A DNA stretch of 64,000 nt, from contig JAGLPU010000006.1 of assembly GCA_023137175.1 (NCBI GenBank), positions 1 through 64,000 of the forward strand, written 5' to 3'. Below the pieces are notes generated by a model. It saw only the letters and a list, made by a program, of their open reading frames with translations, was not told where the DNA came from and did not search any database. Origin of the DNA: Candidatus Parcubacteria bacterium (GTDB lineage Bacteria > Patescibacteriota > Minisyncoccia > Minisyncoccales > JAGLPU01). Made by a program: the position numbers and the translations under genes. Below, one piece after another: positions 28,242 through 61,533 of this stretch; the stretch's first letter is position 1, and each line of letters starts with the position of its first letter.

Positions 28242-28631
28242 CTATGAACCGCCTATATCGCTCCCGACTTTTTTTGTGCTGTTGTCCCATTGCTTCACTT
28301 CTGCTTCCCATTTTCTCTCTGCTTGAAATATCAGAATCACTGGAATTAAAATTCCAAACCAGCAGAAACTATTAGAAGTAATAGATACGGCAAGAAAAGA
28401 AACAATAATCGCGCATAATCCCATTAAGCATACAAGCTTATCTTTATTGATTTTATCTAAATAAAATATATCTTTTGTATGCAAGACAGCAGGGAGAAAT
28501 AATACTAACAGACACCACGGGCTACGGATTATCAGCAATAAGATAAAAGTCATAGCTGATACAGCTATCCATATTCCGACCTGAATATAAAAAATCTCTT
28601 TCTTCCTTTCTTCATTTGCTCCTAACATCAT
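28242..28631 (-). CDS. Small polytopic membrane protein
   Basis: A 129-aa protein with about four hydrophobic segments (around residues 18-36, 37-52, 66-84, 88-103) and a polar C-terminus KWEAEVKQWDNSTKK. It has a strong Shine-Dalgarno (GGAGGTTGG) behind an AATATAAAT segment much like the leaders of the 58-60 kb cassettes, and its own terminator. No family is recognised; it belongs to the orphan small-gene set by its signals. Confidence 0.65.
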   Translation of the reverse strand: MMLGANEERKKEIFYIQVGIWIAVSAMTFILLLIIRSPWCLLVLFLPAVLHTKDIFYLDKINKDKLVCLMGLCAIIVSFLAVSITSNSFCWFGILIPVILIFQAERKWEAEVKQWDNSTKKVGSDIGGS

Positions 28632-42934: not shown

Positions 42935-44641
42935 TTAATCTTTTATATCCAAAATTTCCTTTATTTTTAAAATTAGAGGTTGAAAATTTTTAAATGTGTT
43001 TATATTGATTTCTTTTTGGATTTTCTCTAAAAATTTTTTCTTATCAAAAGTTTTTTCTGTTTTAACGCCTGAATATGGAAGTGGTATTTCCCTATCAGAG
43101 TAAACATCGTCTGTAAATAAAGAATCAGGATATAAATTTTCAATTCCAACAGCTTTGCCGTCTTTATCTTTTGCTTTTGTATTAGTCGAATTTTCCATAA
43201 AACAGAATTTTTTAAAACTATCCGTTTCGTCAATATCTTCTATTTTAGAAGTAGTGTCACAGTCCCAAACAAAAAGAAATTTTCCAGTATAATCACCTGA
43301 CGACATTACATCAAAAGCATTTTTCAATTGTTGCCCTCTTTTATCTGGCGAACCTTCTATTATTTTTATCTGATCAAGTAAATTGTTGTCTAAAATTTGG
43401 ATAGCTTTTTTGATATGTTCTGTATTGTTTCCTTCTGTAATAATTTGTAATTTTTTCGTACCATCAATATTTTTTTGTATTTTCAATCCTTTTTCAAAAG
43501 TTATAATACCCTCACTTAAAAGATTGATTGCATCTGCTTGTGATATTTTATTGATTTTTTTTAGTTCCTTTCCTTTTTGAACTTCAAATAATGACTTTTC
43601 GGACGCAAGTGCAACAGTAGTAGGAGAGTGAGTAGCAAGAATAACTTTACATCTATTTTTAATAAATACATTTTCTATCACATCTAATAAATGTTGAATC
43701 ATAGATGGATGAAGCGAAGCATCTATTTCATCAAGAAGTAATAATTCCGGAAATTTTGACTTATTGTCTTGATATACTGTAATTGCCAATGCACATAATA
43801 TTTTTTCGCCAGATGATAAATCGTCAAAATCAATTTCTTCATTATCTATATGAAGTTTTACTTGAAATAACACCGCTTGACTATTTATAAGATCACCTGC
43901 ATTAAACTTTGGATGTGTAATTGTATGAGGTAATCCAAATTCCACAAACATATTATTAACAAAATTCCACGGAGATTGTTCTTGTAACTTTTTGATTTTG
44001 TCACCCTTAAGCCCTTCTCCCCCATCTTTTTTGAATAATTTTGCGACCGTTAGTTTTTTTTGATAATCAAGAAATACTTCACTTAAACTCTCTAATAGTT
44101 CATAATCATCTGGATTATAGTTTGCAAACTTAAAAAACTCTACCTGCGTAATTTCGGAAGCATATTTGTCAGATTCAAATATTCCCGTTTTAAGCAGTTT
44201 CTTTATTTTTGGATTATTTTGTGTTTGATCATTTATGAATTTTATAATACTCTTTTTTTGTTGTGCATATTGCTCTTTTTGAGCTTCTGATACTTTGGCA
44301 TCATAGGGATATTTTTTTTCTGTTACGATTGTTTTAATTTGATCGTCATAGTTTTGGAATATTTGTTTTTGAGAATTTAAAATATTCCATGCCTGTAACT
44401 TTTCATCATCAAGATTTCTCGGTGCCACATTTTGTTGGTTCTTTATGAGAAATGTTTGAAGATTGAAATATGAAATTTTTTCTTTCGGAATACTGTCAGC
44501 AAAAACAAAACCTTCTTGCATTGCTTTTAGCAGATGGGTTTTTCCAGATCCATTTACTCCTAAAAATATAGAAAAATCTTTAATGTCAGTTTCATTAAAG
44601 TTAATAATGGATTTATATTTCTGATTAAATTTTACTTTCAT
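42935..44641 (-). CDS. OLD-like ATPase with TOPRIM-type C-terminus
   Basis: A 568-aa ABC-type ATPase: Walker A GVNGSGKT (28-35), a long variable helical insert, signature LSSGEK (275-280), Walker B LLLLDEID (300-307) and switch ATHSPTT. The C-terminal 170 residues carry ITEGNNTE (401-408) and VWDCDT (458-463), placed like the Glu and DxD motifs of TOPRIM domains. This is the OLD nuclease architecture found in anti-phage systems. Catalysis is not assured because the motif is diverged. It sits downstream of a restriction-modification pair and next to an hsdS stub. Confidence 0.75.
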   Translation of the reverse strand: MKVKFNQKYKSIINFNETDIKDFSIFLGVNGSGKTHLLKAMQEGFVFADSIPKEKISYFNLQTFLIKNQQNVAPRNLDDEKLQAWNILNSQKQIFQNYDDQIKTIVTEKKYPYDAKVSEAQKEQYAQQKKSIIKFINDQTQNNPKIKKLLKTGIFESDKYASEITQVEFFKFANYNPDDYELLESLSEVFLDYQKKLTVAKLFKKDGGEGLKGDKIKKLQEQSPWNFVNNMFVEFGLPHTITHPKFNAGDLINSQAVLFQVKLHIDNEEIDFDDLSSGEKILCALAITVYQDNKSKFPELLLLDEIDASLHPSMIQHLLDVIENVFIKNRCKVILATHSPTTVALASEKSLFEVQKGKELKKINKISQADAINLLSEGIITFEKGLKIQKNIDGTKKLQIITEGNNTEHIKKAIQILDNNLLDQIKIIEGSPDKRGQQLKNAFDVMSSGDYTGKFLFVWDCDTTSKIEDIDETDSFKKFCFMENSTNTKAKDKDGKAVGIENLYPDSLFTDDVYSDREIPLPYSGVKTEKTFDKKKFLEKIQKEININTFKNFQPLILKIKEILDIKD

Positions 44642-44682
44642 AATTTTATTTCCTTAAAAATTAATCCCTCCAAAAACTTAAC

Positions 44683-44802
44683 CTATTCTCCTTCCCCCCA
44701 CTTCTCAAAAGCAAAAGCTATGTCATCTAAATCGTGTTTTTGTTTTAGGTGTCCGTGCTCGTCAAGTTTTTTCTCCATTTTTGTCAATTTCATAAACTTC
44801 AT
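44683..44802 (-). CDS. 39-aa charged ORF in defence island
   Basis: ATG at 44802 (minus) gives 39 residues: MKFMKLTKMEKKLDEHGHLK, then QKHDLDDIAFAFEKWGEGE. The composition looks protein-like, but there is no good Shine-Dalgarno and no family. It may be the end of a decayed gene, since the frame also extends upstream without a Met. Confidence 0.35.
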   Translation of the reverse strand: MKFMKLTKMEKKLDEHGHLKQKHDLDDIAFAFEKWGEGE

Positions 44803-44841
44803 CCCCTGAATTATCCTTGCCTGAATTTTCGCTCACATAAA

Positions 44842-45366
44842 TTATTTTGGCACTGGCAATCCTATTTTCTGTAATGGCAAATAATGGAAATAATAGGAAC
44901 AACCATTTACTGAAATAATATAATCTAAAACATCTTTATATTCAGGTTTTTTAAACCAGTCATTCAAGATATAGATATATTGCACTTCAATATTTAACTG
45001 CGATAAAAGCTTTCTATATTGTTTTATTTTAAAATCGCAGGTTTGTAATTTTTCATCCGTAGATCCCGCGACTTCTTGAAATTTTATTTCTAAAATAAAT
45101 ATTGTGTTATTCACAATTACGAATATTGCATCATCTGGTAAAAGTCTCTTGGAAATGAGTTTTTTATAATCCACGCCATTTTCTTCTAAATATTTATACA
45201 ATCCATATTTTTTAAAAGACAAAGCAACTTTTTCGCCATTGTAAAAAATTGCATTTCCATTAACACTATAATTTTGTTGACTTCCTATAAAAGTTAAAAA
45301 ATCAACCTTGCCCTCAAAATGAAGTCCTGTTTTTGTATTAGCTCCACCAATTCCACCTTTTTTCAT
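44842..45366 (-). CDS. Putative type II restriction endonuclease (PD-(D/E)XK)
   Basis: A 174-aa protein beginning MKKGGIGGANTKTGLHFEGK. The catalytic motif is P-D-D (77-79) followed 14 residues later by E93-I-K95 in IFILEIKFQEV, a standard PD-(D/E)XK arrangement. The segment STDEKLQTCDFKIKQYRKLL follows. It lies 24 bases after the methyltransferase gene on the same strand, which makes it the likely cognate restriction enzyme. The recognition site is unknown. Confidence 0.78.
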   Translation of the reverse strand: MKKGGIGGANTKTGLHFEGKVDFLTFIGSQQNYSVNGNAIFYNGEKVALSFKKYGLYKYLEENGVDYKKLISKRLLPDDAIFVIVNNTIFILEIKFQEVAGSTDEKLQTCDFKIKQYRKLLSQLNIEVQYIYILNDWFKKPEYKDVLDYIISVNGCSYYFHYLPLQKIGLPVPK

Positions 45367-45390
45367 AATTTTTTTGTTAGTTAATAAAAC

Positions 45391-46239
45391 TTATTTTAAA
45401 TTTTTTAATTCCTTAAACCTTTTTGCAGATAAATCTAAATATTTTATTTCCAAATCAATCCCGATAAATTTTCTGTGATTTAAAAAAGAAGCTAAGCCTG
45501 TCGTTGATGATCCTGTAAATGGATCAAGGACAATGTCATTTTTATTTGTGCTTGCCAAAATAATTCTGACCAACAAATTAATTGGCTTTTGCGTTGGATG
45601 TTTTCCGAATTTTTTTTCTAACGGTTTTGGCGTTCCCATTGCCCAAACACTTCTCATTTGCAGTCCTGGCTTTTTAATAAAATCCTCTGGCCACTCGCCG
45701 TTTTTCATTAAGTCATAATTAAATTTATGCTTTGTCTTAATCGGTTTTTCAGTTTTTGCACTAATTGTATTTTTTCTCGCCCAAATAAGTGTTTCGTGAC
45801 TAGCAGTAAAAAAACGGCAGCTTAGATTTGGCGAAGCATTTGGCTTGAACCAAGCTATATCATTTAAAATATGAAATTTATTAATTTGCAACGCAAAACC
45901 GCATTGATAAATTGAGTGATAAGTTCCTGAAATCCAAATCGTTCCGCCTGGTTTTAAAACTCTATGGCAAGCCTTTGTCCATTCTAAGTGAAAATCAAAA
46001 TCTTTTTTTAATCCATTGCTCAAATCCCAATTACCCTTTTTGACACTTACCATTTTACCATTCTGGCAACTAAAAGTTCCTGACGACAAAAAATAAGGCG
46101 GATCCGCAAAAATCATATCAATGGAATTTGCTGGAATTTGCTCTAAAATTTTTAAACAGTCACTTTTATACAACACAAAATTATCCTTTTGAAAATAAGG
46201 TTTTTCTTTAATTTTACTTAAAACTTTTTGATTTTCCAT
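45391..46239 (-). CDS. DNA methyltransferase, beta class (M2.DpnII/HinfI-like)
   Basis: A 282-aa amino-methyltransferase. The catalytic motif IV is FADPPYF (D46-PPY) and the SAM-binding motif I VLDPFTGSSTTG is near the C-terminus, the beta-class order. Between them are GKMVSVKKGNWD, ILNDIAWFKPNASPNLSCR and GKHPTQKP, close to the DpnA/M2.DpnII and M.HinfI group I remember, so N6-adenine is the likely target. It precedes the putative restriction enzyme gene and protects host DNA from it. Confidence 0.9.
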   Translation of the reverse strand: MENQKVLSKIKEKPYFQKDNFVLYKSDCLKILEQIPANSIDMIFADPPYFLSSGTFSCQNGKMVSVKKGNWDLSNGLKKDFDFHLEWTKACHRVLKPGGTIWISGTYHSIYQCGFALQINKFHILNDIAWFKPNASPNLSCRFFTASHETLIWARKNTISAKTEKPIKTKHKFNYDLMKNGEWPEDFIKKPGLQMRSVWAMGTPKPLEKKFGKHPTQKPINLLVRIILASTNKNDIVLDPFTGSSTTGLASFLNHRKFIGIDLEIKYLDLSAKRFKELKNLK

Positions 46240-46319
46240 GTTGTTATAGTAATATTATAGCTTCTAAACAGGGGAAAGTAAAACAAAAAAACATCTTAAA
46301 TAAGAGATATTTTATGTCT

Positions 46320-46715
46320 TTAATATCTGTATTTACAAATTTTTTCTATAAATTTACAAATCTTATTTTTATTAATATATTCTAAAGAAATATCAATCTC
46401 CTTAATTATTCTTGGAAGATTTTGCTCCTTCCAGTCCTCTTTGAGTCCTTCTAGGATTCTCCTAGAAATTTCGTAGTATTCTGGAAAATTCCTTAGTTCA
46501 TAGACAATTGCAATTTGTCTATCTAATTTTAGAGGAATTCCTGGTTCTTCGGGCTCAACCAATTCCTTTATTAACTGATGATACACGGTAAAACGTTTAT
46601 CTCTTAAATATTCTTTAAATTTAAAAAACGCCCAAAGTGCAGGAATAAGAGCGATAACGATTGTCGTAATTACGGGATAGGCTTCTAATTTATTTATTAT
46701 ATCTAATAGAGTCAT
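46320..46715 (-). CDS. Single-pass membrane protein with cytosolic helical domain
   Basis: A 131-aa protein: an N-terminal transmembrane segment VITTIVIALIPALWAFFKF, a basic EYLRDKRF, then helical LDRQIAIVYELRNFPEYYEISRRILEGLKEDW. Short proteins of this kind are common beside nucleases in accessory regions, but I cannot name a family. It overlaps the Mrr-like gene by 26 bases. Confidence 0.6.
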   Translation of the reverse strand: MTLLDIINKLEAYPVITTIVIALIPALWAFFKFKEYLRDKRFTVYHQLIKELVEPEEPGIPLKLDRQIAIVYELRNFPEYYEISRRILEGLKEDWKEQNLPRIIKEIDISLEYINKNKICKFIEKICKYRY

Positions 46716-47505
46716 TATTAGAAATTAATTTTGTTTTGATAGCTTCTATGTCTGTTCTTTCTAAATTCTCCAAAAATTTATCAAATTTATTAAAATCAAT
46801 TATATCAATTAGAAAATATTCATTTATATTATTTTTAGCTATATCTAAATAGGCATAGTTTACTTCTAACTGGAAACTCTCATCTGTTTTGGAATAATCA
46901 TTTTCATCCCATAGATCAGCTTGATAAATTTTATCAAAATTATTAAAAAGTATTAATGGATAATTTACTGTTTTTAAAATTTTAATGATTTTTCCGGTAG
47001 GTTTTTGTTGTAATGTAGGTGCTGAGTTCTTATAATAAATCATCCCATTCAAACTTTGATTCAATGCCTTATAAACTGGCTCATTTTCAAATAGTTTGCT
47101 TTTTGCAGAAGCAAATAGTTTAGCGGCTTGCTTATTTTTTAAATAATGATGATTTTTTATCAAAATATTTTCATTCGGATGCTTGTGCCCGGTGTCTTTA
47201 ATAATTCTTTTTATAGTTTTTTCATTGTCTCTATCGTCAAACCAAAAAACATTCGGCTCATCTATGTATTTACACTCTATGAAAAATCTTATATTTAAAT
47301 CTCCAATCTTTCGGAAAGAAGATTCAATTGCAAATTTTTTCTCCGCTATTATGTCTATTTCTCTTGCCTTATTTGTCTGATTATCATTATAATATGGACT
47401 AATCAAAACTTCCCAATTATTTTTTTTTAAAAAATTTATAACTTGATAATGAAAAGTGTTTCCGCTTTTTTTGATTAACTCTTTTACTGAATCTTCTTTT
47501 TTCAT
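46690..47505 (-). CDS. Mrr-like restriction endonuclease-fold protein
   Basis: From the ATG at 47505, 271 aa. The N-terminal 80 residues show the Mrr-type nuclease pattern: NTFHYQVINFLKKNNWEVLISPYYND, then REIDIIAEK (acidic residue) and FFIECKY (ECK). The remaining 190 residues have no recognised domain. A restriction-like nuclease acting on modified or foreign DNA is plausible. It is first in the minus-strand defence island. Confidence 0.65.
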   Translation of the reverse strand: MKKEDSVKELIKKSGNTFHYQVINFLKKNNWEVLISPYYNDNQTNKAREIDIIAEKKFAIESSFRKIGDLNIRFFIECKYIDEPNVFWFDDRDNEKTIKRIIKDTGHKHPNENILIKNHHYLKNKQAAKLFASAKSKLFENEPVYKALNQSLNGMIYYKNSAPTLQQKPTGKIIKILKTVNYPLILFNNFDKIYQADLWDENDYSKTDESFQLEVNYAYLDIAKNNINEYFLIDIIDFNKFDKFLENLERTDIEAIKTKLISNNDSIRYNK

Positions 47506-47596
47506 ATTTTGATTTATTAGTTGAATCATCAAAAGTGACACTTCTTTCTCTTAAACTACCATTTTTGACTTTAAAAAACAAGCAGATTTTGAACAA

Positions 47597-47646: not shown

Positions 47647-48735
47647 TCACTGATAACAAATTTCTAAGTTGGAAAAACTGCCTTCCGGATCAGCTGGCCA
47701 AGCGTCAGAAGTATAAAAAACCAAATAGACCTTGTCTAACCCGGAAACATTGATTTCGAAATCGCAATTTTTAGAAGCGGTATATTTAGCCACTCCGCAT
47801 TTATCTAAAAGTCCAGGATGAGTATTGGAAACGGAACATTTGGCAACTGTATCTTGAGTGTATCCTTTGTTGCATTCCGAGCTCAAAGCCGGATTGGGAT
47901 TTTCAGAAACTGCCCAAAGGCTGACATAATCGTCATATTTCACACCAACTCCCCCGCTCTCAACAAAGAATTTATCATGAACATAAAGGCCTAAATCGGC
48001 TTTAATTCTTAACTTACTGGCCCCATTGGTGGAAATTTCTTTAACATAATGCTCCCGCCAACGGGAGATTGAATCAAGGCAACGGATGGAAAATTTATCA
48101 TCCGCCGCTACTCTGGAATAACTATTGCAGGGAAAATTAGAATCATAAAGCCAATAAGTTTGATAATTTGAAGAAAGATTGATTGACTTGCACTCGCCGC
48201 TGACAAATGGCGCAGGCGTCGACATAGTCTCCGGCTCAGTGGATAAAGTGGCTGACATCACGCCAGTGTCTATTATTTTTTGAATAGCGCTTTTAACTTC
48301 GGGCTCACTCTCTATGCCAAGCAAGACGAGAATCCCTAATTCATTCGGATTTGATTCCGGAAACGTCATAAAAACCGATGAATCGTTTTCTAAAACAACC
48401 CAATCCGAAATCTCATTAATTATTTTCTTTTCTCCTTCTGTCCCGGCCACCAAGCTTAATTTTGCTCCTGCAACTGCTTCCGCACTGTCATACGCTAACT
48501 TTATTAAAAAACTGTCAGGCAGAGAAAGTATCGTGCATTTTTCGCCTTTAATCGGTCTTGCTCCTGATACGGCCTCAAATTCCTGCAAAGTAAGAGGCGT
48601 AAGCGGCTCGCAGACTGCTTCAGGCGCTAATTCTTCTTTGGTTCCCGAGAACCAAACCCCAACCGCAATTATCAAGATTAAAATTGTTCCGCCAATAATT
48701 AATGATTTTTTAGATTCTAAAATATTTTTTATCAT
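47647..48735 (-). CDS. Membrane-anchored exported protein, unknown
   Basis: From the ATG in an ATGA overlap at 48735, 362 aa: an N-terminal anchor (SLIIGGTILILIIAVGVWFS), then an exported part with paired Cys. The first half resembles a scaffold domain with FLIKLAYDSAEAVAGAKLSL; the second, after a Thr/Pro linker, is Cys-containing and beta-rich (CKSINLSSNYQTYWLYDSNF, CDFEINVSGLDKVYLVFY). No family is recognised. It is co-transcribed with the Cys-rich protein and probably acts with it at the cell surface. Confidence 0.7.
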   Translation of the reverse strand: MIKNILESKKSLIIGGTILILIIAVGVWFSGTKEELAPEAVCEPLTPLTLQEFEAVSGARPIKGEKCTILSLPDSFLIKLAYDSAEAVAGAKLSLVAGTEGEKKIINEISDWVVLENDSSVFMTFPESNPNELGILVLLGIESEPEVKSAIQKIIDTGVMSATLSTEPETMSTPAPFVSGECKSINLSSNYQTYWLYDSNFPCNSYSRVAADDKFSIRCLDSISRWREHYVKEISTNGASKLRIKADLGLYVHDKFFVESGGVGVKYDDYVSLWAVSENPNPALSSECNKGYTQDTVAKCSVSNTHPGLLDKCGVAKYTASKNCDFEINVSGLDKVYLVFYTSDAWPADPEGSFSNLEICYQ

Positions 48736-51224
48736 ATGCAAAACATCCATTTGCATGGTTTTTCTTTAATGGTAATAAATTCGCTGACTTCTGACTTTTC
48801 AAAATTTTTCTCATATTGTTCCGGCTTGAGAATAATATCAATCAGTCCCGGCTCCTTGTCTATAAATTCCTCGTCTGTCGTGGAATAAACCAAACCCTTG
48901 ATATTCAATTTTTCTGTTTCCTTTGGGATAATTTTTGAATAGACTATAAACTCTGACTGCGGAGACATGACCACATATTTTCCTCCCATAGTTTTGGTTA
49001 AATTCGTCAGGAAATTTCCCAATATTGAATGCAATCCGCCTGACCAGTTAAAGCCCATGTTATATTCTTCTACTTCAAATTCTCCGTCCGAGGAAAAAGA
49101 AATTTCAGGAACCACGGCTATATTGTGACTGGATATGTTTTCTATATTCAATGTCGCCAGAAAGGCTTCTCCTTTGATCGCTTCAAGATTTTCCTTTTTA
49201 ACTGTCTTCCCTTGAATCTCAAGACATATTTTCAAACCCTTGTGTCCAGTGCAGAAAGAGATGTCGTCTTTTATCTCATTGTATGCTTCGCTGAATTCAG
49301 TCTGGTGATATGTCTGCTTTTCATAAATTTTTTGAGCTATCTCTTCATCTTCCACTTTTTTAAATTCTTGGGATATTGTTTTAACGCACTGAAAATTTTT
49401 GTCGCATATCCCCTCGGGGCAATCCCAACTATTAATACATGTCCCTTCTACAATCTCGCCGTTTTTACACATTTGGGGCATATATTCGCTAAAAAAAGTT
49501 GTTTCCAACAACCCTTTCGGGACAACAAAAGTTCCGCTCGGCGCAATGCCCCCTAACGCCTCATGAACGCTATAAATCGTATTGTTATAATCTGAAGGAT
49601 ACATAAAATATTTTCCCGGCGCGCAACAAGCATTTTGAAAGCCGCAGTCCGCAGGACAATTTTCACAATCTTCGTTCAGCCAATATTCGCAGTAGTTTTT
49701 GTTCCCGCAAACTGCTTTTTCTTCAGGAACGGAAACCTCTTCATCAACGCCTTCCTGTTTTTCCGCGCAAGTCCAAGTATCATGGTCGCAATGCCCGCTG
49801 ACACACATTGCTGACCCGTAATCACCGCACTTTTCTCCAATTTGCCACTTATACCGGCAGCTGTATGAATCCTGCTCACAGTATTCGTTATCTCGGCAAT
49901 CAGAATGATCGTTGCAACAAACCTGCCCATATTCGCAACAAATCGCGGCTTTGTCGCCGCAAGTGTCGGACAGACATTCATCATCTTCCGTACACTTTTG
50001 GCCTAGCGGTTTAGCCGGCTCGCAAAAATGATAGAAAGAAGAGCAATATTCATCTAAGCCACAATGGTTATGCGAAAAACAACACTCCTTTCCCGCAGCG
50101 CAACAGCGATAATTGCGGCAATTATCTGATTTACATTCTGAATCTTTGTCGCAATATTCTCCGTTTGATTTTTTAATTTCCTCCGCATCTTCTTTGCAAT
50201 AATTGTAAAGACAGCTTTCTCCCGCAGAACAATCAGAGTCCGAGCAACAATCCAACCCTCCGTCCTGCACATACTTTTCTCCAACGGTTTTTTGCTTGCC
50301 GTCACAGCAAACATAATAATAGGTATATTCTCCGCTTTTATAGGCGCCTGTATCACGATTACTCACACAACCCTTCCAATCTTGACTGCCGCTTATCATC
50401 ACAGAATCCGGATGGATGCAACATCCCCCGGCACAAGCACAATCTCCAGCGCAGTCATAACAATTCTCCCCGCTTTCGCATAAACCGTTTCCGCAAACAG
50501 GTCCACAGCTCCCACAATCCGAAGAACAAGAAGAACACGTTTCTCCGCTATCACAGGTCCCGTCGCCACAATAAGAACTCTTTGCGCAAGTATGGCCGCT
50601 GCACACTTCTCCTATATTACAATCATAACCTGAACAACAATCCCCGTAATATTCCGCTCCATAGCAGCAAATATAGTTTGAAGAAATATTTTCTCTATGG
50701 CTGACACAACCCTTAGAATCAGCGTAAGAAGAACTCGGAGAACAACATTCAGTGCCAAAAGCGCATCCGCAATCCGACGAACAACTTGAACAATCCTCCC
50801 CTCTTTCGCATGAACCGTTTCCGCAAACAGGACCTGAAACAGAATTCGCTTCAATGGTCCAGCTTTGGCTCTCGTAATCTCCGCAATAACCGCAATACCA
50901 ACTCACCTGAAAATTTAATCTCTGTCCAGCTGACACGTTAACATAACAGCTTGAGTCCCAATCGCACAAATCAATGCTCAAATCAGCGCAGCTGCTTGGA
51001 TTAGTGGTGCCTTGCGCTTTTAGGGAAACTTTGCTGCCGGAATACGAATAAGGAATATCTACATAATAATTTGATTTACCGCCGTAGCATTCAGAACCAT
51101 ATTTGGAATTGTCCAATTCAACTTCGTATGAAGTATCAGCAAATAATACATTGGTTAAAAAAAGCTGTAAAAAAATACTTAGAATAAAAATAATTACTAC
51201 TCCCTTGATGTTAAAATATCTCAT
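48732..51224 (-). CDS. Large Cys-rich secreted surface protein
   Basis: From the ATG at 51224, 830 aa with a signal peptide (MRYFNIKGVVIIFILSIFLQ to about FAD). A beta-rich N-terminal domain is followed by at least four CGxGxCxxGExCxxCxxDC-type repeats (for example CGNGSCERGEDCSSCSSDCG, CGDGTCDSGETCSSCSSDCG, CGNGLCESGENCYDCAGDC) and several CxxDxDCxxxxxC units of another kind. The last 200 residues lack most Cys and read as a separate domain. With so many Cys an oxidising exterior and disulfide formation are implied. Adhesion or host contact is a guess. Confidence 0.75.
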   Translation of the reverse strand: MRYFNIKGVVIIFILSIFLQLFLTNVLFADTSYEVELDNSKYGSECYGGKSNYYVDIPYSYSGSKVSLKAQGTTNPSSCADLSIDLCDWDSSCYVNVSAGQRLNFQVSWYCGYCGDYESQSWTIEANSVSGPVCGNGSCERGEDCSSCSSDCGCAFGTECCSPSSSYADSKGCVSHRENISSNYICCYGAEYYGDCCSGYDCNIGEVCSGHTCAKSSYCGDGTCDSGETCSSCSSDCGSCGPVCGNGLCESGENCYDCAGDCACAGGCCIHPDSVMISGSQDWKGCVSNRDTGAYKSGEYTYYYVCCDGKQKTVGEKYVQDGGLDCCSDSDCSAGESCLYNYCKEDAEEIKKSNGEYCDKDSECKSDNCRNYRCCAAGKECCFSHNHCGLDEYCSSFYHFCEPAKPLGQKCTEDDECLSDTCGDKAAICCEYGQVCCNDHSDCRDNEYCEQDSYSCRYKWQIGEKCGDYGSAMCVSGHCDHDTWTCAEKQEGVDEEVSVPEEKAVCGNKNYCEYWLNEDCENCPADCGFQNACCAPGKYFMYPSDYNNTIYSVHEALGGIAPSGTFVVPKGLLETTFFSEYMPQMCKNGEIVEGTCINSWDCPEGICDKNFQCVKTISQEFKKVEDEEIAQKIYEKQTYHQTEFSEAYNEIKDDISFCTGHKGLKICLEIQGKTVKKENLEAIKGEAFLATLNIENISSHNIAVVPEISFSSDGEFEVEEYNMGFNWSGGLHSILGNFLTNLTKTMGGKYVVMSPQSEFIVYSKIIPKETEKLNIKGLVYSTTDEEFIDKEPGLIDIILKPEQYEKNFEKSEVSEFITIKEKPCKWMFCI

Positions 51225-51316
51225 TTTTTTATTATACCAAATTAAAATAAAAACGCACCTGTCTGCGGTCAAATTCCATAATTTTATTCGCGCCTTATTG
51301 AGATTTAATCAAGTTT

Positions 51317-55614: not shown

Positions 55615-57288
55615 TTAGTCTTTAGTTAGAGATTCAACCACTTCCTTTGGCACCCTGCTTTCTAAAAGAATAACATCATTCGGCCTAAGAAACTTTTTAA
55701 TTTTGGCTAAAATCAGCTCCGAGTTTTCAAGAAATAAAATGTTTTCTTTTTTCATTCCTTTTTTCATTGCCGCTTTTTTCATTTCTTTAAAATGCTCTTT
55801 GCTGGTGATAATCGCCAATCCGCAGACTTGGCCAATTTTAGCCCCTATTCTTTGGTGGACTTCCGAAGATGTATTTCCAAGCTCAATAAGACATGGCATA
55901 ATGATCGCCTTTCTTCCAGAACAAGCGTTTAAATAATTCAAATGAGAAATTACTCCGTCAGGATTGGCAGAATAAGCAGCGTCAATAACATTTATTCCTT
56001 TAGACTTGAAAAGCTTCATTGCTCCGGGCAAAGGCCTGACTTTTTTACAGGCCTGGGCAATCTCATCCAAGCTCATGCCCAGCTCTTGGGCGCAGCAAAC
56101 AGCAGCTAAGATATTAGGAATATTATGCGTTCCCAATAAATTTACCCTGAAATCAGCGCTATCGCCATTTTGGGAAAAAACCGTGAAAGATATAAAATCA
56201 TTGTCTATCTTTATGTTTTCCGCCCAGACATCCAATTTTTCCTTAACCGAATAAAGCTTTTGATTAACGGTTACTTTTTCTTCTCTGATATACTTGTTGT
56301 CTCCGTTTAAAATAGCTGTTCCGTTTTCAGGCAAGCTGTTGATCAGCTCAAATTTGGCTTTTACGATATTCTCTTGAGAGCCGAAAGTCGCCAAATGCTG
56401 CTCGTTAATGCCGGTTAAAATCCCTATTTTCGGCTTAGTAATGTCACAAAGCAGCTTTATCCCCCCTTTGTTATAAGCGGCCATTTCACAGATAAAAATC
56501 TCGTGCTCCGGCTTTAATTCCTGTAAAATGCATTGCGAAACTCCTATCTCTGAGTTCCTGTGCTTATGGGTTTTTAAAACTTTAAACTTTTCTTCCAGAA
56601 TAACCGCTAGAATCTCTTTGGTTGAGGTTTTCCCATAGCTGCCGGTAATGCCGATCACCGTCAGCCGATTAAAGATAGTTATCTTCTTTTTGGCTTTATT
56701 AATAATCCTGTTTCTGCTTAAAATCGCCAGCGGTTGAAAAAACATAACCACGAAAGAAACAATAACCGGCGTTAAGACATCAAATATTAAAAGATAGAAT
56801 AAGGTTAAAGTCGGATCTGATTTTATTACACATTCTTGTTGGGAAAGCCAAAATAGAAATAAAGCTTGAAGAAAGAAAGAAGCAAGAATCAAGACAATGG
56901 TTTTTTTGGTTAAAACCGGAATTCTTAATTCTTTCAAGAAAACATCTTTAACAATTTTAATAAATTCAAAAGAATACAGTAATAGATTGCCTAAGACCAC
57001 CAAGGAAATTAAGTTGACAAAAACCTTGGAGAAATCTCCCAGAAAAACCACTGAAAAAGGAGAAAGGCTAAAATAAGGAATAAACAAATACCAGCAGAAA
57101 GCAAGCGCTAAAATTGAAAGGAATTTCAATAAAATTCTCCTATTCAAAAAAAGGCTCCTGCCTTTGTCAGTGCGAAAATGAGCCCAAAAACGGCCTAAGT
57201 GGTATTCTTTTAACTGCCAAAGATAAATCCAAAACAAAATGTTTTTGGCAACCATGGCAATCCATAAAAAAGCTAAAATATAAATCAT
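55615..57288 (-). CDS. MurF-like ligase fused to an N-terminal membrane domain
   Basis: A 557-aa protein. Residues 1-200 contain about six hydrophobic segments in place of the small UDP-binding N-terminal domain of soluble MurF. The Mur ligase core follows: GITGSYGKTST at 213-223, THKHRNSEIGVS, ICEMAAYNKGGI, TGINEQHLATFGS, and a C-terminal domain with AYSANPDGV. It is the only MurF-like gene in the window, so it may add D-Ala-D-Ala at the membrane, or act on a lipid-linked substrate. It overlaps the hydrolase gene by 4 bases (ATGA). Confidence 0.85.
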   Translation of the reverse strand: MIYILAFLWIAMVAKNILFWIYLWQLKEYHLGRFWAHFRTDKGRSLFLNRRILLKFLSILALAFCWYLFIPYFSLSPFSVVFLGDFSKVFVNLISLVVLGNLLLYSFEFIKIVKDVFLKELRIPVLTKKTIVLILASFFLQALFLFWLSQQECVIKSDPTLTLFYLLIFDVLTPVIVSFVVMFFQPLAILSRNRIINKAKKKITIFNRLTVIGITGSYGKTSTKEILAVILEEKFKVLKTHKHRNSEIGVSQCILQELKPEHEIFICEMAAYNKGGIKLLCDITKPKIGILTGINEQHLATFGSQENIVKAKFELINSLPENGTAILNGDNKYIREEKVTVNQKLYSVKEKLDVWAENIKIDNDFISFTVFSQNGDSADFRVNLLGTHNIPNILAAVCCAQELGMSLDEIAQACKKVRPLPGAMKLFKSKGINVIDAAYSANPDGVISHLNYLNACSGRKAIIMPCLIELGNTSSEVHQRIGAKIGQVCGLAIITSKEHFKEMKKAAMKKGMKKENILFLENSELILAKIKKFLRPNDVILLESRVPKEVVESLTKD

Positions 57289-58037
57289 AAAAATTCTAAA
57301 ATAATTTTGGCGGTTTTTTCAGGAGCTTCTTTATGAGGACTGTGTCCTTCTCCTGGAACAACTTTTAATTCCGCATTTTTAATTTCTTTTTCCATAATGC
57401 GCCCATATTTCAGTGGCACCATTTTATCCCTTTCTCCCCAAATAAGCAAGGTTTCAGCTTTGATTTGCGGCAATAACAACAATAAGTCCTCATCTAAAAT
57501 CTTTCTCATTGTTTCTTTCATTATTGGGCTAGCTTTAACATAATCTTTATGGGACAAGAAAGAATAAAAAATCTTACGAACAGCATTTTTCAATAATCTA
57601 TTGAAAAAAAAGAAATTACCGATTTTAGCTGTTCCTAAAACAAGTTTTTGCTTTATTGTCAGCTCCGGCTTAATCCCGGCTGCTCCGCATAAAACCAGCT
57701 TTTCAACTTTTTCAGGATATTTCGCGCTTAATTTTATTGCCACCCGTCCGCCAAAAGAATGTCCGATGACTATAAGCTTATCTATTTTAAGAGAACCAAT
57801 AAATTCAATAGTCCAGGCAAGATAGTCATCAAGATTCCAAGCGCTTTCAGGAGTTTCGCTTTTGCCAAAGCCGGGAAAATCAGGACAAATTACTTGAAAA
57901 TCCCGCTGTTTTAAAGTTTGTTCAATTTTTAGCCAAGAGTCCGGAGAACTTCCCCAGCCGTGCAAAATCAAAACCACACGGCCTTTTCCGACAATTCTAT
58001 AACTGGTTTCAATGCCTTTAATTGAAATTTTCTCCAT
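57285..58037 (-). CDS. Alpha/beta hydrolase
   Basis: From the ATG at 58037 (MEKISIKGIETSYRIVG), 250 aa. It has the oxyanion HGWGSS, the nucleophile in GHSFGG, the acid in WGERDKMVP and His in GEGHSPHKE. A cap region between residues 125 and 185 is basic and hydrophobic. The substrate is unknown; an esterase or haloalkane-type fold. The overlap with the membrane MurF-like gene suggests a shared transcript. Confidence 0.85.
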   Translation of the reverse strand: MEKISIKGIETSYRIVGKGRVVLILHGWGSSPDSWLKIEQTLKQRDFQVICPDFPGFGKSETPESAWNLDDYLAWTIEFIGSLKIDKLIVIGHSFGGRVAIKLSAKYPEKVEKLVLCGAAGIKPELTIKQKLVLGTAKIGNFFFFNRLLKNAVRKIFYSFLSHKDYVKASPIMKETMRKILDEDLLLLLPQIKAETLLIWGERDKMVPLKYGRIMEKEIKNAELKVVPGEGHSPHKEAPEKTAKIILEFL

Positions 58038-58046
58038 TTTATTTTC

Positions 58047-58075
58047 TTGACAATCCTCCATAATGTTGTTAATAT
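58047..58075 (+). promoter_or_regulatory. Promoter of cassette A
   Basis: TTGACA (58047-58052), 17 bases, TAATAT (58070-58075), overlapping the divergent hydrolase leader. Confidence 0.65.
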
Positions 58076-58124
58076 ATTATTGCACATTTATATAAGAATA
58101 TCAAAAATATGGAGGTAGATAGAG

Positions 58125-58406
58125 ATGGAAATAGAAACAATATATGTATTTTTGTTTATGAGCTTAGTCATTTTAGGCCCATGGTATATTGGTCTTAGTA
58201 AGCCAGGGAAGAAAATATTTAAAAATGGAGTTGCTTTCTTTGTAGCATGGTTTGCAGGAATAGCGTCTACCCTTCCGATAAGAGCTACTTTTGGAGCTTT
58301 TAATCTATACTCAGTAATAGCGTGGGCTTTTGTTTTCTTAGGCTTTTACTTGCTCTGCAGTATTTTTCCAAGACCGAATCAAACTGTGGGCATGGATCAT
58401 GATTGA
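58125..58406 (+). CDS. Small membrane protein, array cassette A
   Basis: 93 aa, three hydrophobic stretches (about 6-24, 35-52, 60-82) and a polar end PRPNQTVGMDHD. ATG after GGAGGTAGATA, an 11-base leader shared exactly with cassettes B and F. First of six consecutive plus-strand units lying between two minus-strand housekeeping blocks. Family unknown. Confidence 0.7.
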   Translation: MEIETIYVFLFMSLVILGPWYIGLSKPGKKIFKNGVAFFVAWFAGIASTLPIRATFGAFNLYSVIAWAFVFLGFYLLCSIFPRPNQTVGMDHD

Positions 58407-58423
58407 GTGATATCTATTTCTTT

Positions 58424-58448
58424 GGCAACTAAGTTGCCTTTTTATTTT
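58424..58448 (+). terminator. Terminator of cassette A
   Basis: GGCAAC-TAA-GTTGCC (58424-58438) then TTTTTATTTT. Confidence 0.75.
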
Positions 58449-58455
58449 GAAAAGC

Positions 58456-58483
58456 TTGCTTAATTCTTAGAAAATGGTATCAA
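58456..58483 (+). promoter_or_regulatory. Promoter of cassette B
   Basis: TTGCTT, 16 bases, TATCAA. The spacer differs by one base from that of cassette D. Confidence 0.6.
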
Positions 58484-58534
58484 GTTAATACACTATTAGC
58501 AATTTAAAATATAAATATACGGAGGTAGATAAGA

Positions 58535-58771
58535 ATGGATTTGATTTATTTGATTTTGTACGTAGCTTTAATATTGCTTTCTCTTCATTTTTGTAAAGAT
58601 AAAGAAGGAGCATTAATAGTATGGTTTGTTGCGATGATGTTATCCCTAACTTTAATATTCTGCATCGGCCCCGGCATATATCCAATAATAACTTTTTTTG
58701 CTGTGTTTCTAAGCATCTATCCTTTTCTTTTCCTGTTGACTGAAAAGGATCCGTCGCCTATCTGCAGTTAA
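58535..58771 (+). CDS. Small membrane protein, array cassette B
   Basis: 78 aa with three hydrophobic segments (MDLIYLILYVALILLSLHF; ALIVWFVAMMLSLTLIF; IITFFAVFLSIYPFLFLL), a CKDKEG loop and a short acidic tail. It shares the MDLI start with cassette C. It has the GGAGGTAGATA leader and its own promoter and terminator. Confidence 0.7.
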   Translation: MDLIYLILYVALILLSLHFCKDKEGALIVWFVAMMLSLTLIFCIGPGIYPIITFFAVFLSIYPFLFLLTEKDPSPICS

Positions 58772-58810
58772 TTAATCTAGTTCTATAAATCATATATAAA
58801 ACTATAAAAG

Positions 58811-58837
58811 GCAACACTTAAGTTGCTTTCTTTTTTT
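58811..58837 (+). terminator. Terminator of cassette B (repeat of C)
   Basis: GCAAC-ACTTAA-GTTGC, then TTTC and a T-run, then AAAAAGCTTG. About 40 bases here match the end of cassette C almost exactly. Confidence 0.75.
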
Positions 58838-58844
58838 AAAAAGC

Positions 58845-58873
58845 TTGACAAATCTATACATACGTGTTATTAA
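58845..58873 (+). promoter_or_regulatory. Promoter of cassette C
   Basis: TTGACA (58845-58850), 17 bases, TATTAA (58868-58873). Confidence 0.65.
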
Positions 58874-58911
58874 TATAGTACATTTACATAAAAAAACGGA
58901 GGTAGGAAATA

Positions 58912-59175
58912 ATGGATTTGATTAGTCTTGTTTTAACCAACCCAATTTGGATAGGAGTATATATCATAGGACTGGTAATGGTAAAAATAATGTTTCAATA
59001 CGACTGCAAAAACGGAAAAGAATATTTAGTTGCTATTGCTTGGCCAGTGCTTCTTGTAATACTTGGTTGCGTTGTCGTAATATACTGCGCGCACAGAGCA
59101 ATAAGTCTATTTTGCTCTACTTTAAAAAAAATTGAAACAAAAATTATTTCTCTATTTGTAAAGGGCAACACTTAA
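58912..59175 (+). CDS. Small membrane protein, array cassette C
   Basis: 87 aa: MDLISLVLTNPIWIGVYIIG, a QYDCKNGKEY loop, a second helix IAWPVLLVILGCVVVIY, and an amphipathic basic tail (TLKKIETKIISLFVKGNT). The last codons and stop (GGCAACACTTAA) are part of the terminator hairpin, so the reading frame has run into the cassette end. Shine-Dalgarno GGAGGTAGG. Function unknown. Confidence 0.7.
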   Translation: MDLISLVLTNPIWIGVYIIGLVMVKIMFQYDCKNGKEYLVAIAWPVLLVILGCVVVIYCAHRAISLFCSTLKKIETKIISLFVKGNT

Positions 59176-59192
59176 GTTGCTTTCTTTTTTTT
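59165..59192 (+). terminator. Terminator of cassette C (repeat of B)
   Basis: GCAAC (59165-59169), ACTTAA, GTTGC (59176-59180), then TTTC and a T-run. It contains the cassette C stop codon. Confidence 0.75.
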
Positions 59193-59200
59193 AAAAAAGC

Positions 59201-59228
59201 TTGCTTAATTCTCAGAAAATGGTATTAA
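59201..59228 (+). promoter_or_regulatory. Promoter of cassette D
   Basis: TTGCTT (59201-59206), 16 bases, TATTAA (59223-59228). Confidence 0.6.
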
Positions 59229-59273
59229 GAAATTGCACATTTAAATTATAAAAGGACAAATTGAGGTGATAAA

Positions 59274-59444
59274 ATGGATCAAGAAACTATAATAAAGTTG
59301 GTTGGAATATTAGAAGAAAACCTTGTTGGCCCGCTTTGGGAAAGTTTTGTACAAATAGTAGGTACGATATTTATAGGAGTGCTGTTCATACTCATAATGG
59401 TTGGGTTCATAGAAGGAGCAATGGAAGAAGCAGATAAGATGTAA
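59274..59444 (+). CDS. Small membrane protein, array cassette D
   Basis: 56 aa from the ATG at 59274, preceded by GAGGTGAT: amphipathic start MDQETIIKLVGILEENLVGP, one transmembrane helix IVGTIFIGVLFILIMVGFI, and an acidic end EGAMEEADKM. Too short for most gene finders. Its promoter spacer is nearly that of cassette B. Function unknown. Confidence 0.65.
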   Translation: MDQETIIKLVGILEENLVGPLWESFVQIVGTIFIGVLFILIMVGFIEGAMEEADKM

Positions 59445-59482
59445 ATGCTGTCCTAATTCTATTTCGCTCTGATAAACATTAA

Positions 59483-59510
59483 GGTAACATCTGGTTGCCT
59501 TTTTCTTTTT
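59483..59510 (+). terminator. Terminator of cassette D
   Basis: GGTAAC-ATCTG-GTTGCC (59483-59499) then TTTTTCTTTTT. Confidence 0.7.
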
Positions 59511-59517
59511 AGAAAGT

Positions 59518-59545
59518 TTGACTTTTTAGTAAAAAAGTATAGAAT
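59518..59545 (+). promoter_or_regulatory. Promoter of cassette E
   Basis: TTGACT (59518-59523), 16 bases, TAGAAT (59540-59545). Confidence 0.6.
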
Positions 59546-59586
59546 TGTACTATTAGTAACTTAAAAATAAATATGGGGTGAAAGAA

Positions 59587-59874
59587 ATGAGTGAAATGGG
59601 CGGTAATCTCTTCAAATTTTGTGGAATAGTCCTATTTTTCTGAGTAGGAGAAAGCTTCATTATACTATTCCAATCATCATGGACGATGTGGATAGCAATT
59701 TACAGTATAATGTCTGTATTAATGTATCTCAGTGTGAAAATATCTCTTGAAGGAACTGCTGAGCAAGACGACAGTTGCGCCTTATTTTGGCTTTCTGCTT
59801 TATGGGCAGCAACAACTTTTGTTTGGCTACGGATTTTAACAGACTATTTCTTTGAAAAAATAAAGAGCTTTTAA
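59587..59874 (+). pseudogene. Cassette E, paralogue of F broken by an in-frame TGA
   Basis: From the ATG at 59587 (leader GGGGTGAAAGAA) the frame reads MSEMGGNLFKFCGIVLFF, TGA at 59641, then VGESFIILFQSS and onward to DYFFEKIKSF and stop. Cassette F reads VLFFW-LAESF at the same place and ends DYFFKKIKSS, so a Trp codon TGG has become TGA. Other genes here end in TGA, so read-through is not the default. Either a fresh pseudogene, a sequencing error, or restart at an internal Met (MWIAIYS). Confidence 0.7.
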
Positions 59875-59892
59875 GCTCTTTTTTATTTTTCC
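59862..59892 (+). terminator. Terminator of cassette E
   Basis: AAAGAGCTT-TT-AAGCTCTTT then TTTATTTTT; contains the final stop codon. Same sequence family as the terminator of F. Confidence 0.75.
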
Positions 59893-59897
59893 AAAAC

Positions 59898-59925
59898 TTG
59901 ACTTTTCCCTATAAAATGGTATTAA
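59898..59925 (+). promoter_or_regulatory. Promoter of cassette F
   Basis: TTGACT (59898-59903), 16 bases, TATTAA (59920-59925). Confidence 0.6.
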
Positions 59926-59973
59926 GTTAATACAAAGTATAGTAACTTAAAATATAAATGGAGGTAGATAAAA

Positions 59974-60255
59974 ATGTACGAAGACGATATATTAAGTGCT
60001 TTGCTCGGAATTTCTGGAGGAGTCCTATTTTTCTGGTTAGCAGAAAGCTTTGCCATTATTACTGGTCTTCCAGTAATGGTATATCTAGTATTTTATACCG
60101 TAATGGCTTGCTTAATGTACTTTAGCCTGAAAATAGTCCTCAAAGAAAAAGGAGAAGGAAAGTATTTTTGCCTTTCTATTATTTGGACAGCAATAAGTTT
60201 TATTTGGTTGTTGAGTGTAGCCGACTATTTCTTTAAAAAAATAAAGAGCTCTTAA
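59974..60255 (+). CDS. Small membrane protein, array cassette F
   Basis: 93 aa with three hydrophobic segments (LLGISGGVLFFWLAESFAII; VMVYLVFYTVMACLMYFSL; LSIIWTAISFIWLLSVADYFF) and a basic end KKIKSS. Paralogue of the broken cassette E: the VLFF, KI-L and DYFF-KIKS blocks align. It has the GGAGGTAGATA leader, as in A and B. Function unknown; a small channel-like or immunity-like role cannot be judged from sequence. Confidence 0.72.
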   Translation: MYEDDILSALLGISGGVLFFWLAESFAIITGLPVMVYLVFYTVMACLMYFSLKIVLKEKGEGKYFCLSIIWTAISFIWLLSVADYFFKKIKSS

Positions 60256-60270
60256 GCTCTTTTTTTATTT
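60243..60270 (+). terminator. Terminator of cassette F
   Basis: AAAGAGCT-CTTA-AGCTCTTT (60243-60262) then a T-run. It reaches the 3' end of the convergent serS. Confidence 0.75.
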
Positions 60271-61533
60271 TCCAATAACTTCTTTGTTGAGATATTTTTG
60301 CAAAGCCTTCGGTACTTTTATACTACCGTCTTTTTGCTGATAGTTTTCAATAATGGCAATTATTATCCTGCCAATGGCAAAAGCGGTTCCATTAAGAGTA
60401 TGGATAAATTCCAGTTTTCCTGTTTCCTTATTGCGATAGCGCATATTAAGGCTGCGAGCCTGAAAATCAGTGCAATTAGAAGTGGAATGAGTTTCCCGAT
60501 AGCAATTGGCAGTAGGCAGCCAGGCTTCTACGTCATACTTTACTGCCGCCGGCGCGCCTAAATCACCTGTGCAAATTTGCAATACTTGATAAGGAATTTC
60601 TAATTCCTGCATTAGTTTTTCTTCCATCGCTAAAATAAGCTGATGCTCTTCTTTTGATGAGGCCGGATTACAGAAACTAAACATCTCCACTTTATCAAAC
60701 TGATGAACTCTTAGAATGCCCTTAGTGTCTTTGCCATAGCTCCCCGCTTCTCTCCGAAAACAAGTGGAAAAAGCGGCATATCTTTTAGGTAAATCTTTTT
60801 CTTCAAAAATCTCGTCCCGGTGCATTGGCCCGATTGACTGTTCACTGGTGCCCACTAAAACTAAACCGTCTTTTTCTAGTTGATAAACTTCATCTGAATC
60901 TTCTCTTTCAAAATAGCCCATATCTTTCATATTCTCTTTTTTGATCATTACGGGCGGCACAACCGGAACAAAGCCTTCTTTGGTTAAAGTGTTGAAAATG
61001 AAATTGATCAAAGCAAATTCCAATAGAGCAATGTCTCCCTTCAAATAGCCGAATCTGGCTCCGGAAACTTTAGCCGCTCTTTTGACATCAATCATGTCTA
61101 AATTCTCGGCGATTGTTAAATAGTCCTTCGGTTCAAAATCAAAATTCGGCTTTTTGCCGACTTCTCTAATAGATATGTTCTCTTTATCGTCCTTGCCTTC
61201 CGGAACCTCATCTAGGGGCATATTAGGCACCTTGAAGAGTAGGCTACTGAATTCCTGATCAATTATTTTAAATTCTTGCTGCAGCTTGTCACTTTTTTCA
61301 TCTACTTCTTTCATCGCCGCAATAATCTTTTGCTTTTCTTTTTCCTCACCCGCATCAACAATTTCCTTGCCAGCCTTATTTTTTTCAGCGCTAAAACTGT
61401 CTAAGCTGGTCATTAGTTCTCTTCTCTTTTCGTCCAGCTCAAAAAGCCGGTCAATATCAATTTTTACTTGTTTTTTTTGACAGCCTTTTATAACTGCCTC
61501 TTTATTCTCTCTAATGTATTTTATATCAAGCAT
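60265..61533 (-). CDS. serS: Seryl-tRNA synthetase
   Basis: Class II synthetase of 422 aa with the long N-terminal tRNA-binding coiled coil (residues 1-105) and core motifs: TSEQSIGPMHRDEI, FSTCFRREAGSYGKDTKGILRVHQFDKVE (motif 2) and HTLNGTAFAIGRIIIAIIENYQ (motif 3). Normal bacterial type. greA lies 21 bases upstream on the same strand. Confidence 0.96.
   Translation of the reverse strand: MLDIKYIRENKEAVIKGCQKKQVKIDIDRLFELDEKRRELMTSLDSFSAEKNKAGKEIVDAGEEKEKQKIIAAMKEVDEKSDKLQQEFKIIDQEFSSLLFKVPNMPLDEVPEGKDDKENISIREVGKKPNFDFEPKDYLTIAENLDMIDVKRAAKVSGARFGYLKGDIALLEFALINFIFNTLTKEGFVPVVPPVMIKKENMKDMGYFEREDSDEVYQLEKDGLVLVGTSEQSIGPMHRDEIFEEKDLPKRYAAFSTCFRREAGSYGKDTKGILRVHQFDKVEMFSFCNPASSKEEHQLILAMEEKLMQELEIPYQVLQICTGDLGAPAAVKYDVEAWLPTANCYRETHSTSNCTDFQARSLNMRYRNKETGKLEFIHTLNGTAFAIGRIIIAIIENYQQKDGSIKVPKALQKYLNKEVIGK

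What the first reader, a model, noticed from the sequence alone, without database searches (positions are those of the whole stretch)
58047..60270. Tandem array of six small membrane-protein cassettes, each with its own promoter, SD and terminator
Seen: between two minus-strand housekeeping blocks there are six consecutive plus-strand units of 300-420 bases. Each has TTGACA/TTGCTT/TTGACT, 16-17 bases, a TATTAA-like -10, a GGAGGT/GAGGTG leader, a 56-95-codon membrane protein and a hairpin with T-run. Leaders of A, B and F share an identical 11-base string; ends of B and C share about 40 bases; E and F share a terminator. E and F are paralogues, B and C share an N-terminus, while A and D have diverged. 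Inference: repeated duplication and fast divergence of one cassette type, as in surface, immunity or contact systems. I know of no named family.
Basis: partly seen in the sequence, partly recalled or inferred. Interest (0 to 1): 0.87.

Follow-up and report, generated by a model that had tools for sequence, protein, structure and literature searches.

The report
Six-fold small membrane-gene array
A tiny bacterium carries six small membrane-protein genes in a row, each with its own on- and off-switch, where its closest relative has two and more distant relatives have one or none; the switches stayed alike while the proteins between them changed almost beyond recognition.

Summary
The array is real: six plus-strand units, each with a promoter-like element, an SD, a short hydrophobic ORF and a terminator. 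Unit E is broken by an in-frame TGA. The six leaders are clearly related to each other. The ORFs mostly are not; only E and F, and C with a gene of the sister genome, show clear protein homology. The array splits a junction that is otherwise tight and same-strand (SerS then an alpha/beta-hydrolase) across this order. In about a dozen other genomes of the order that junction is opened by one opposite-strand small membrane gene. Its -35 box overlaps the hydrolase start codon, in one register (TTGACn-N6-CAT/CAC) in eight families; none of 32 genomes scored as gap-less has it. Best reading: a resident, fast-diverging small-membrane-protein locus, amplified 1 to 2 to 6 in this genus, whose promoter and terminator frame outlives its ORFs. 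Function is unknown; protection or modulation of the cell envelope is the guess. No known protein family, fold or RNA matched. Type I toxin-antitoxin and mobile-cassette readings were tested and not supported.

The parts
57285..58061 (-). alpha/beta-hydrolase; left neighbour. Its first codons (M-E-D-C-Q) contain the -35 box of unit A on the other strand
   Evidence: Pfam Abhydrolase_1 2.2e-33; register TTGACA-N6-CAT
58047..58075 (+). promoter A: TTGACA-17-TAATAT, overlapping the hydrolase start codon
   Evidence: same register in the sister genome and in seven other families
58125..58406 (+). unit A ORF, 93 aa, 3 predicted TM segments, SD GGAGGTAGATA at 58111
58424..58438 (+). terminator A, GGCAACTAAGTTGCC followed by T-run
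58456..58483 (+). promoter B: TTGCTT-16-TATCAA with TGG before it
   Evidence: leader model hit 62 bits
58535..58771 (+). unit B ORF, 78 aa, 3 predicted TM segments, SD GGAGGTAGATA at 58521
58808..58829 (+). terminator B; its core GGCAACACTTAAGTTGC is identical to that of C
58845..58873 (+). promoter C: TTGACA-17-TATTAA
   Evidence: model hit 41.6 bits
58912..59175 (+). unit C ORF, 87 aa, 2 predicted TM segments; closest to sister unit 1. The stop codon lies inside the terminator hairpin
59162..59183 (+). terminator C
59201..59228 (+). promoter D: TTGCTT-16-TATTAA with TGG before it
   Evidence: model hit 53.4 bits
59274..59444 (+). unit D ORF, 56 aa, 1 predicted TM segment
59481..59501 (+). 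terminator D
59518..59545 (+). promoter E: TTGACT-16-TAGAAT
59587..59874 (+). unit E, 95 codons with an in-frame TGA at 59641-59643; broken paralogue of F
59862..59881 (+). terminator E, copy of terminator F
59898..59925 (+). promoter F: TTGACT-16-TATTAA with TGG before it
   Evidence: model hit 59.2 bits
59974..60255 (+). unit F ORF, 93 aa, 3 predicted TM segments; orthologue-like partner of sister unit 2 (48.9% identity over 94 aa), SD GGAGGTAGATA at 59960
60243..60262 (+). terminator F, bidirectional, shared with the convergent SerS
   Evidence: both strands
60265..61533 (-). seryl-tRNA synthetase; right neighbour, convergent to the array

Best explanation
The array is a genus-level amplification of a small-membrane-protein gene that lives, on the opposite strand, in the junction between SerS and an alpha/beta-hydrolase. 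Each unit is read as an independent transcription unit: its own promoter, an SD, a short hydrophobic ORF and its own terminator. The first promoter is the ancestral one; its -35 box overlaps the hydrolase start codon. Extra units most likely arose by tandem duplication, with recombination between the repeated leaders and terminators changing the number (two in the sister genome, six here). The frame (promoter, leader, terminator) is kept while the ORFs diverge fast under weak purifying selection, and some die (E). The products are predicted 1-3-helix integral membrane proteins. Most likely they act at the cytoplasmic membrane as fast-evolving protective or modulatory proteins, such as immunity to membrane-acting agents or exclusion of phage; this functional step is inference, perhaps 25-30% likely. 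Independent transcription and translation are predicted from sequence, not shown.
For: Same neighbours with 2 units in the same-genus genome. The leader model finds all six window units at 35-62 bits and both sister units at 55-59 bits, and nothing else in the window above 10 bits; the next best hit in its own genome scores 19 bits, before an ordinary gene. Leaders are related in all 28 unit pairs (z 2.4-19), whereas ORFs exceed z 5 only within E/F/sister unit 2. Protein homology: E-F-sister unit 2; C-sister unit 1; sister unit 1-F. dN/dS F versus sister 0.54 (bootstrap 0.27-1.09), hydrolase 0.18, SerS 0.05. Single opposite-strand small TM genes at the same junction in other families: 8 seen in 20 opened gaps against 0.02 expected from shuffles, 0 on the SerS strand; further cases. 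The TTGAC promoter is present in 15 of 26 loci with gap >=130 nt and 0 of 32 without, and the exact register TTGACn-N6-CAY in 11 of 26 versus 0 of 32.
Against: Only two genomes of the genus are held, so direction and tempo of the copy-number change rest on one comparison. Proteins of the other families are not detectably homologous to the array proteins, so common descent of the single genes rests on position and promoter. A, B and D have no clear protein relatives (A-B only z 4.7). No expression data. In three promoter-bearing genomes there is no convincing membrane ORF. Loci with opened gaps were over-sampled on purpose, and the promoter search stretch is shorter in gap-less loci (the 15-base register test is not affected).
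Confidence: 0.6

Rival explanations
1. Gene nursery: the junction keeps a promoter and a terminator, and the ORF between them is repeatedly replaced or born anew from T-rich spacer, hence hydrophobic and unrelated between families. The array is the same process in multiplied form.
For: Same promoter register in eight families over unrelated ORFs of 28 to 113 aa, and over no ORF in three genomes. At the orthologous first position of the array the leaders match (z 19.1) but the ORFs do not (z 1.7). T-rich non-genic DNA readily encodes TM segments in yeast (PMC7005711).
Against: Congeneric single genes keep their ORF (L095/L107 88% identity, dN/dS 0.25; L062/L106 35% identity, dN/dS 0.21 with saturated dS), as genes under selection do. 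Some of the single genes share a weak common pattern (A6). Fast divergence of one old gene looks the same once similarity is lost. Leader A/ORF C fusion by deletion explains the swap without new birth.
Confidence: 0.2
2. Array of immunity or superinfection-exclusion proteins: each paralogue blocks a different membrane-acting bacteriocin, phage or neighbour toxin.
For: Lineage-specific copy number, fast divergence, 2-3 TM size range, separate promoters allowing constitutive expression.
Against: No hit in PADLOC or PHROGs, no phage relative; no toxin or phage gene next to it.
Confidence: 0.15
3. Tandem type I toxin-antitoxin-like loci (as ldr or zor): small hydrophobic toxins with antisense RNAs.
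For: Tandem, hydrophobic, separately transcribed units.
Against: Membrane type I toxins are generally under 60 aa with one TM helix (PMC8309996); five of six products here are 78-95 aa with 2-3 TM segments. No antisense promoter recurs at one position of the units and F has none.
Confidence: 0.05
4. Mobile gene cassettes captured by site-specific recombination (integron-like), the shared ends being recombination sites.
For: Shared ends with hairpins, variable cores.
Against: Each unit carries its own promoter and the hairpins are short terminators with T-runs. The ends differ between E/F and A-D. The only integrase-like ORF seen in the window is about 30 kb away (28852-29781). The location is conserved and the two nearest genomes have the same neighbours.
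Confidence: 0.03

Closest known systems
Tandemly repeated type I toxin-antitoxin loci (ldr/rdl, zor/orz, ibs/sib)
   Same: Small hydrophobic proteins, each in its own transcription unit, repeated head to tail in intergenic DNA
   Different: Products mostly larger with 2-3 TM segments, no recurring antisense promoter, and ORFs diverge far more than flanks
De novo emerging transmembrane ORFs of T-rich intergenic DNA (Vakirlis et al. 2020, yeast; PMC7005711)
   Same: Short, lineage-restricted, TM-rich ORFs in AT-rich spacer
   Different: Here the promoter, SD and terminator are strong and recur across families, in a bacterium, and the unit is amplified
Tandem arrays of small immunity or exclusion membrane proteins (from general knowledge)
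   Same: Copy-number variation, fast divergence, separate expression
   Different: No sequence, fold or neighbourhood link to any described member was found

Membership tests
Type I toxin-antitoxin (Ldr/Zor kind) | Product under about 60 aa with a single TM helix | tested here: not met
   A, B, C, E, F are 78-95 aa with 2-3 TM segments; only D (56 aa, 1 TM) fits
Type I toxin-antitoxin (Ldr/Zor kind) | Antisense RNA gene opposite each toxin mRNA | tested here: not met
   No antisense promoter-like site at a common position; none in F. Transcripts themselves not testable
Type I toxin-antitoxin (Ldr/Zor kind) | Toxicity on overexpression | not testable with these tools
   Needs experiment
Integron gene cassette array | attC-type recombination site at each end and an integrase gene | tested here: not met
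   Only short terminator hairpins at unit ends, no Rfam match above threshold, no integrase beside the array; a tyrosine-recombinase-like ORF lies 30 kb away at 28852-29781 (by inspection)
Any Pfam, NCBIfam, PHROGs or PADLOC family | Score above the family cut-off | tested here: not met
   Best hits E about 0.01, all below cut-off and inconsistent between members
Known membrane protein fold | Foldseek match to PDB or viral models | tested here: inconclusive
   Model of F is three helices at pLDDT 71, pTM 0.44; no match with E below 3
De novo emerged TM gene | Orthologous non-coding ancestor shown | tested here: inconclusive
   Three promoter-bearing genomes lack a membrane ORF, but whether they are ancestral or decayed is not known

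The most novel reading that the evidence does not exclude
A fixed transcription frame, with its -35 box locked in place because it also encodes the first codons of a neighbouring enzyme, serves across a bacterial order as a nursery in which small membrane proteins are repeatedly born, replaced and, in this genus, multiplied.
Probability: 0.2. Interest if true: 0.8.

Novelty: new variant of a known kind. Interest (0 to 1): 0.5.

Why it matters
Very small genomes have little room for lineage-specific duplications, so a six-fold array of separately transcribed membrane proteins points to something under strong or changing pressure at the cell envelope. The locus also offers a comparative series (no gene, promoter without ORF, one gene, two, six) between fixed neighbours, in which turnover or birth of small membrane proteins in bacteria can be followed directly. 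The promoter embedded in the hydrolase start codon is a simple marker for finding further cases.

Tried and rejected
TGA read as Trp to rescue E: rejected, TGA ends 10 of 52 long window ORFs. RNA element or riboswitch in the leaders: only sub-threshold Rfam hits. Genome-wide regulon sharing the leader: the leader model finds no other array, only weak hits before ordinary genes. Relatives elsewhere in the order by profile: none beyond the two genomes of the genus; weaker hits carry stops or lie in long ORFs. Relatives in viral contigs, phages and named genomes: none. Weak PDB sequence hits to a potassium channel (E 0.05): composition-like, not pursued. Profile comparison of array proteins with the single-gene family A6: no match. 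A6 elsewhere in genomes: only at this junction apart from one stop-containing weak hit. The first tally of ORFs downstream of SerS had wrong orientation and was replaced. In one search one locus (L088) has a meaningless negative gap from a spurious alignment; it is among the 32 counted as gap-less.

Full report
Setting. The window lies on a 65-kb contig of a 779-kb genome, about 90% complete. The size and gene set suggest a CPR-type bacterium; its taxonomy was not established. The nearest genome in the set is of the same genus. Its locus matches contig JAUVEE010000020.1 of CSMAG_315; MAGs with that prefix come from a cold-seep catalogue (PMC10491686).

Observation. Between the hydrolase start (58061) and the SerS end (60265) there are six plus-strand units. 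All six ORFs are preceded by a readable -35/-10 pair, with a GGAGGT SD in A, B, C and F and weaker SDs in D and E. Each is followed by one terminator hairpin. Terminators A-D share a GGCAAC..GTTGCC core in varying states, and E and F share AAAGAGCT..AGCTCTTT. Terminator F also serves SerS from the other side. The stops of C, E and F lie inside their terminator stems, so the KIKS ending common to E, F and sister unit 2 is partly terminator sequence. E contains TGA at codon 19, where F has TGG and sister unit 2 has TGT.

More than chance. Thirteen of 15 leader pairs exceed the best of 192 comparisons with other upstream regions in the window, and 14 of 15 exceed all 300 dinucleotide shuffles. 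A sequence-only model of the leader finds the six units at 35-62 bits and nothing else above 10 bits in the window; its own units match by construction. In the rest of the genome the best other hit is 19 bits, before a gene whose counterpart in the sister genome is also hit, so it reflects an ordinary promoter plus SD.

Frame versus core. For the six units and the two of the sister genome, leaders are related in every pair (z 2.4-19.1). ORF DNA is related strongly only within E/F/sister unit 2 (z 20-24), then sister unit 1 with sister unit 2 (4.9) and with F (3.3). The 3' ends fall into groups A/B/C and E/F/sister unit 2. At protein level, with shuffles that keep local hydrophobicity, E-F-sister unit 2, C-sister unit 1 and F-sister unit 1 are clear, A-B is suggestive (z 4.7), and D has no relative. 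Leaders A and sister unit 1 are orthologous by position and similarity (z 19.1), yet the ORF behind the sister leader resembles C, not A. Deletion between repeated leaders, or insertion of units, explains this without further assumptions; which occurred is not known.

Sister genome. It has hydrolase, two plus-strand units of 96 aa each, then SerS. dN/dS of F versus sister unit 2 is 0.54 (0.27-1.09), of the hydrolase 0.18 and of SerS 0.05. This means relaxed or fast evolution; positive selection is not shown.

Order-wide comparison, which changes the picture. SerS and the hydrolase are neighbours on one strand in most genomes of this order in which both were located on one contig, usually less than about 120 bases apart. 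At sequence level 58 loci were scored: 32 with gap under 130 nt and 26 with larger gaps, the latter deliberately over-sampled. Larger gaps often contain one opposite-strand small TM ORF with an SD. They occur in G023 and G064 (108 and 113 aa, one genus), G058 (79 aa), G199 (96 aa), G142 (54 aa), G245 and G124 (93 aa, one genus), G007 (85 aa) and, with a weaker SD, G045 (94 aa); similar ORFs sit beside SerS in G082 and G138. In 20 gaps the strict test finds 8 on the array strand, 0 on the SerS strand, and 0.02 expected; one of the eight, in G246, is doubtful.

Promoter in the start codon. In 11 of the 26 opened loci, from eight families, the array strand carries TTGACn, exactly six bases, then CAT or CAC, which is the hydrolase start codon read backwards. 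The hydrolase there begins M-x-x-Cys/Ser/Gly-Gln. None of the 32 loci scored as gap-less shows it (Fisher 3e-5 for the register, 3e-7 for any TTGAC promoter; genomes are related, so these are not strict probabilities). G245, G124 and G007 have TTGAC about two bases beyond the start codon instead. In G123, G046 and G068 the promoter and a terminator-like hairpin remain but no convincing membrane ORF lies between; G240 has a 28-aa TM peptide.

Are the single genes the same gene? Five of them can be laid into one loose alignment (A6), which finds only this junction apart from one stop-containing weak hit. A6 and the array profile do not match, and no cross-family protein pair passes a strict test. 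Common descent is therefore inferred from place and promoter, not shown by protein sequence.

Function. Nothing in Pfam, NCBIfam, PHROGs, PADLOC, Rfam, PDB or BFVD matches. The model of F is three helices at moderate confidence (pLDDT 71, pTM 0.44), and that of the A6 family two helices at low confidence. I infer small integral membrane proteins made independently of each other. A protective or modulatory role at the envelope is the likeliest guess, but it is a guess.

Verdict.

Noticed in passing
window 42935-47541 (-): Low-GC block (mostly 0.26-0.33) with an AAA_21 ATPase resembling defence ATPases (AriA, MAD3, PtuA; NCBIfam scores below cut-off), a type II-like DNA methyltransferase (PADLOC 2.5e-91) and orphans: a probable defence island.
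   Followed up: partly
L092 (G123), L116 (G046), L093 (G068), SerS-hydrolase gap: Conserved divergent promoter and a terminator-like hairpin with roughly 100-130 nt between and no convincing ORF: possible small RNA or decayed gene.
   Followed up: partly
window 48732-51272 (-): 846-aa Cys-rich protein with repeated CGNGxCExGExCxxCxxDC motifs, no NCBIfam match.
   Followed up: no
window 5291-6394 (+) and 2173-2856 (+): Inositol-3-phosphate synthase-like protein (below curated cut-off) and an archaeal-type UMP kinase.
   Followed up: no
L014 2459-3928 and 9723-10496: The sister genome has a LysS-like gene between GreA and SerS and an extra transglutaminase-like gene after the aminotransferase, absent at these places in the window (names by inspection).
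   Followed up: no
L089 (G103) and L104 (G042): In two genomes the SerS-hydrolase gap holds a same-strand nucleotidyltransferase-like gene of about 135 aa instead (name by inspection).
   Followed up: no
window 28242-28631 (-): 129-aa orphan membrane protein, no Pfam match.
   Followed up: no
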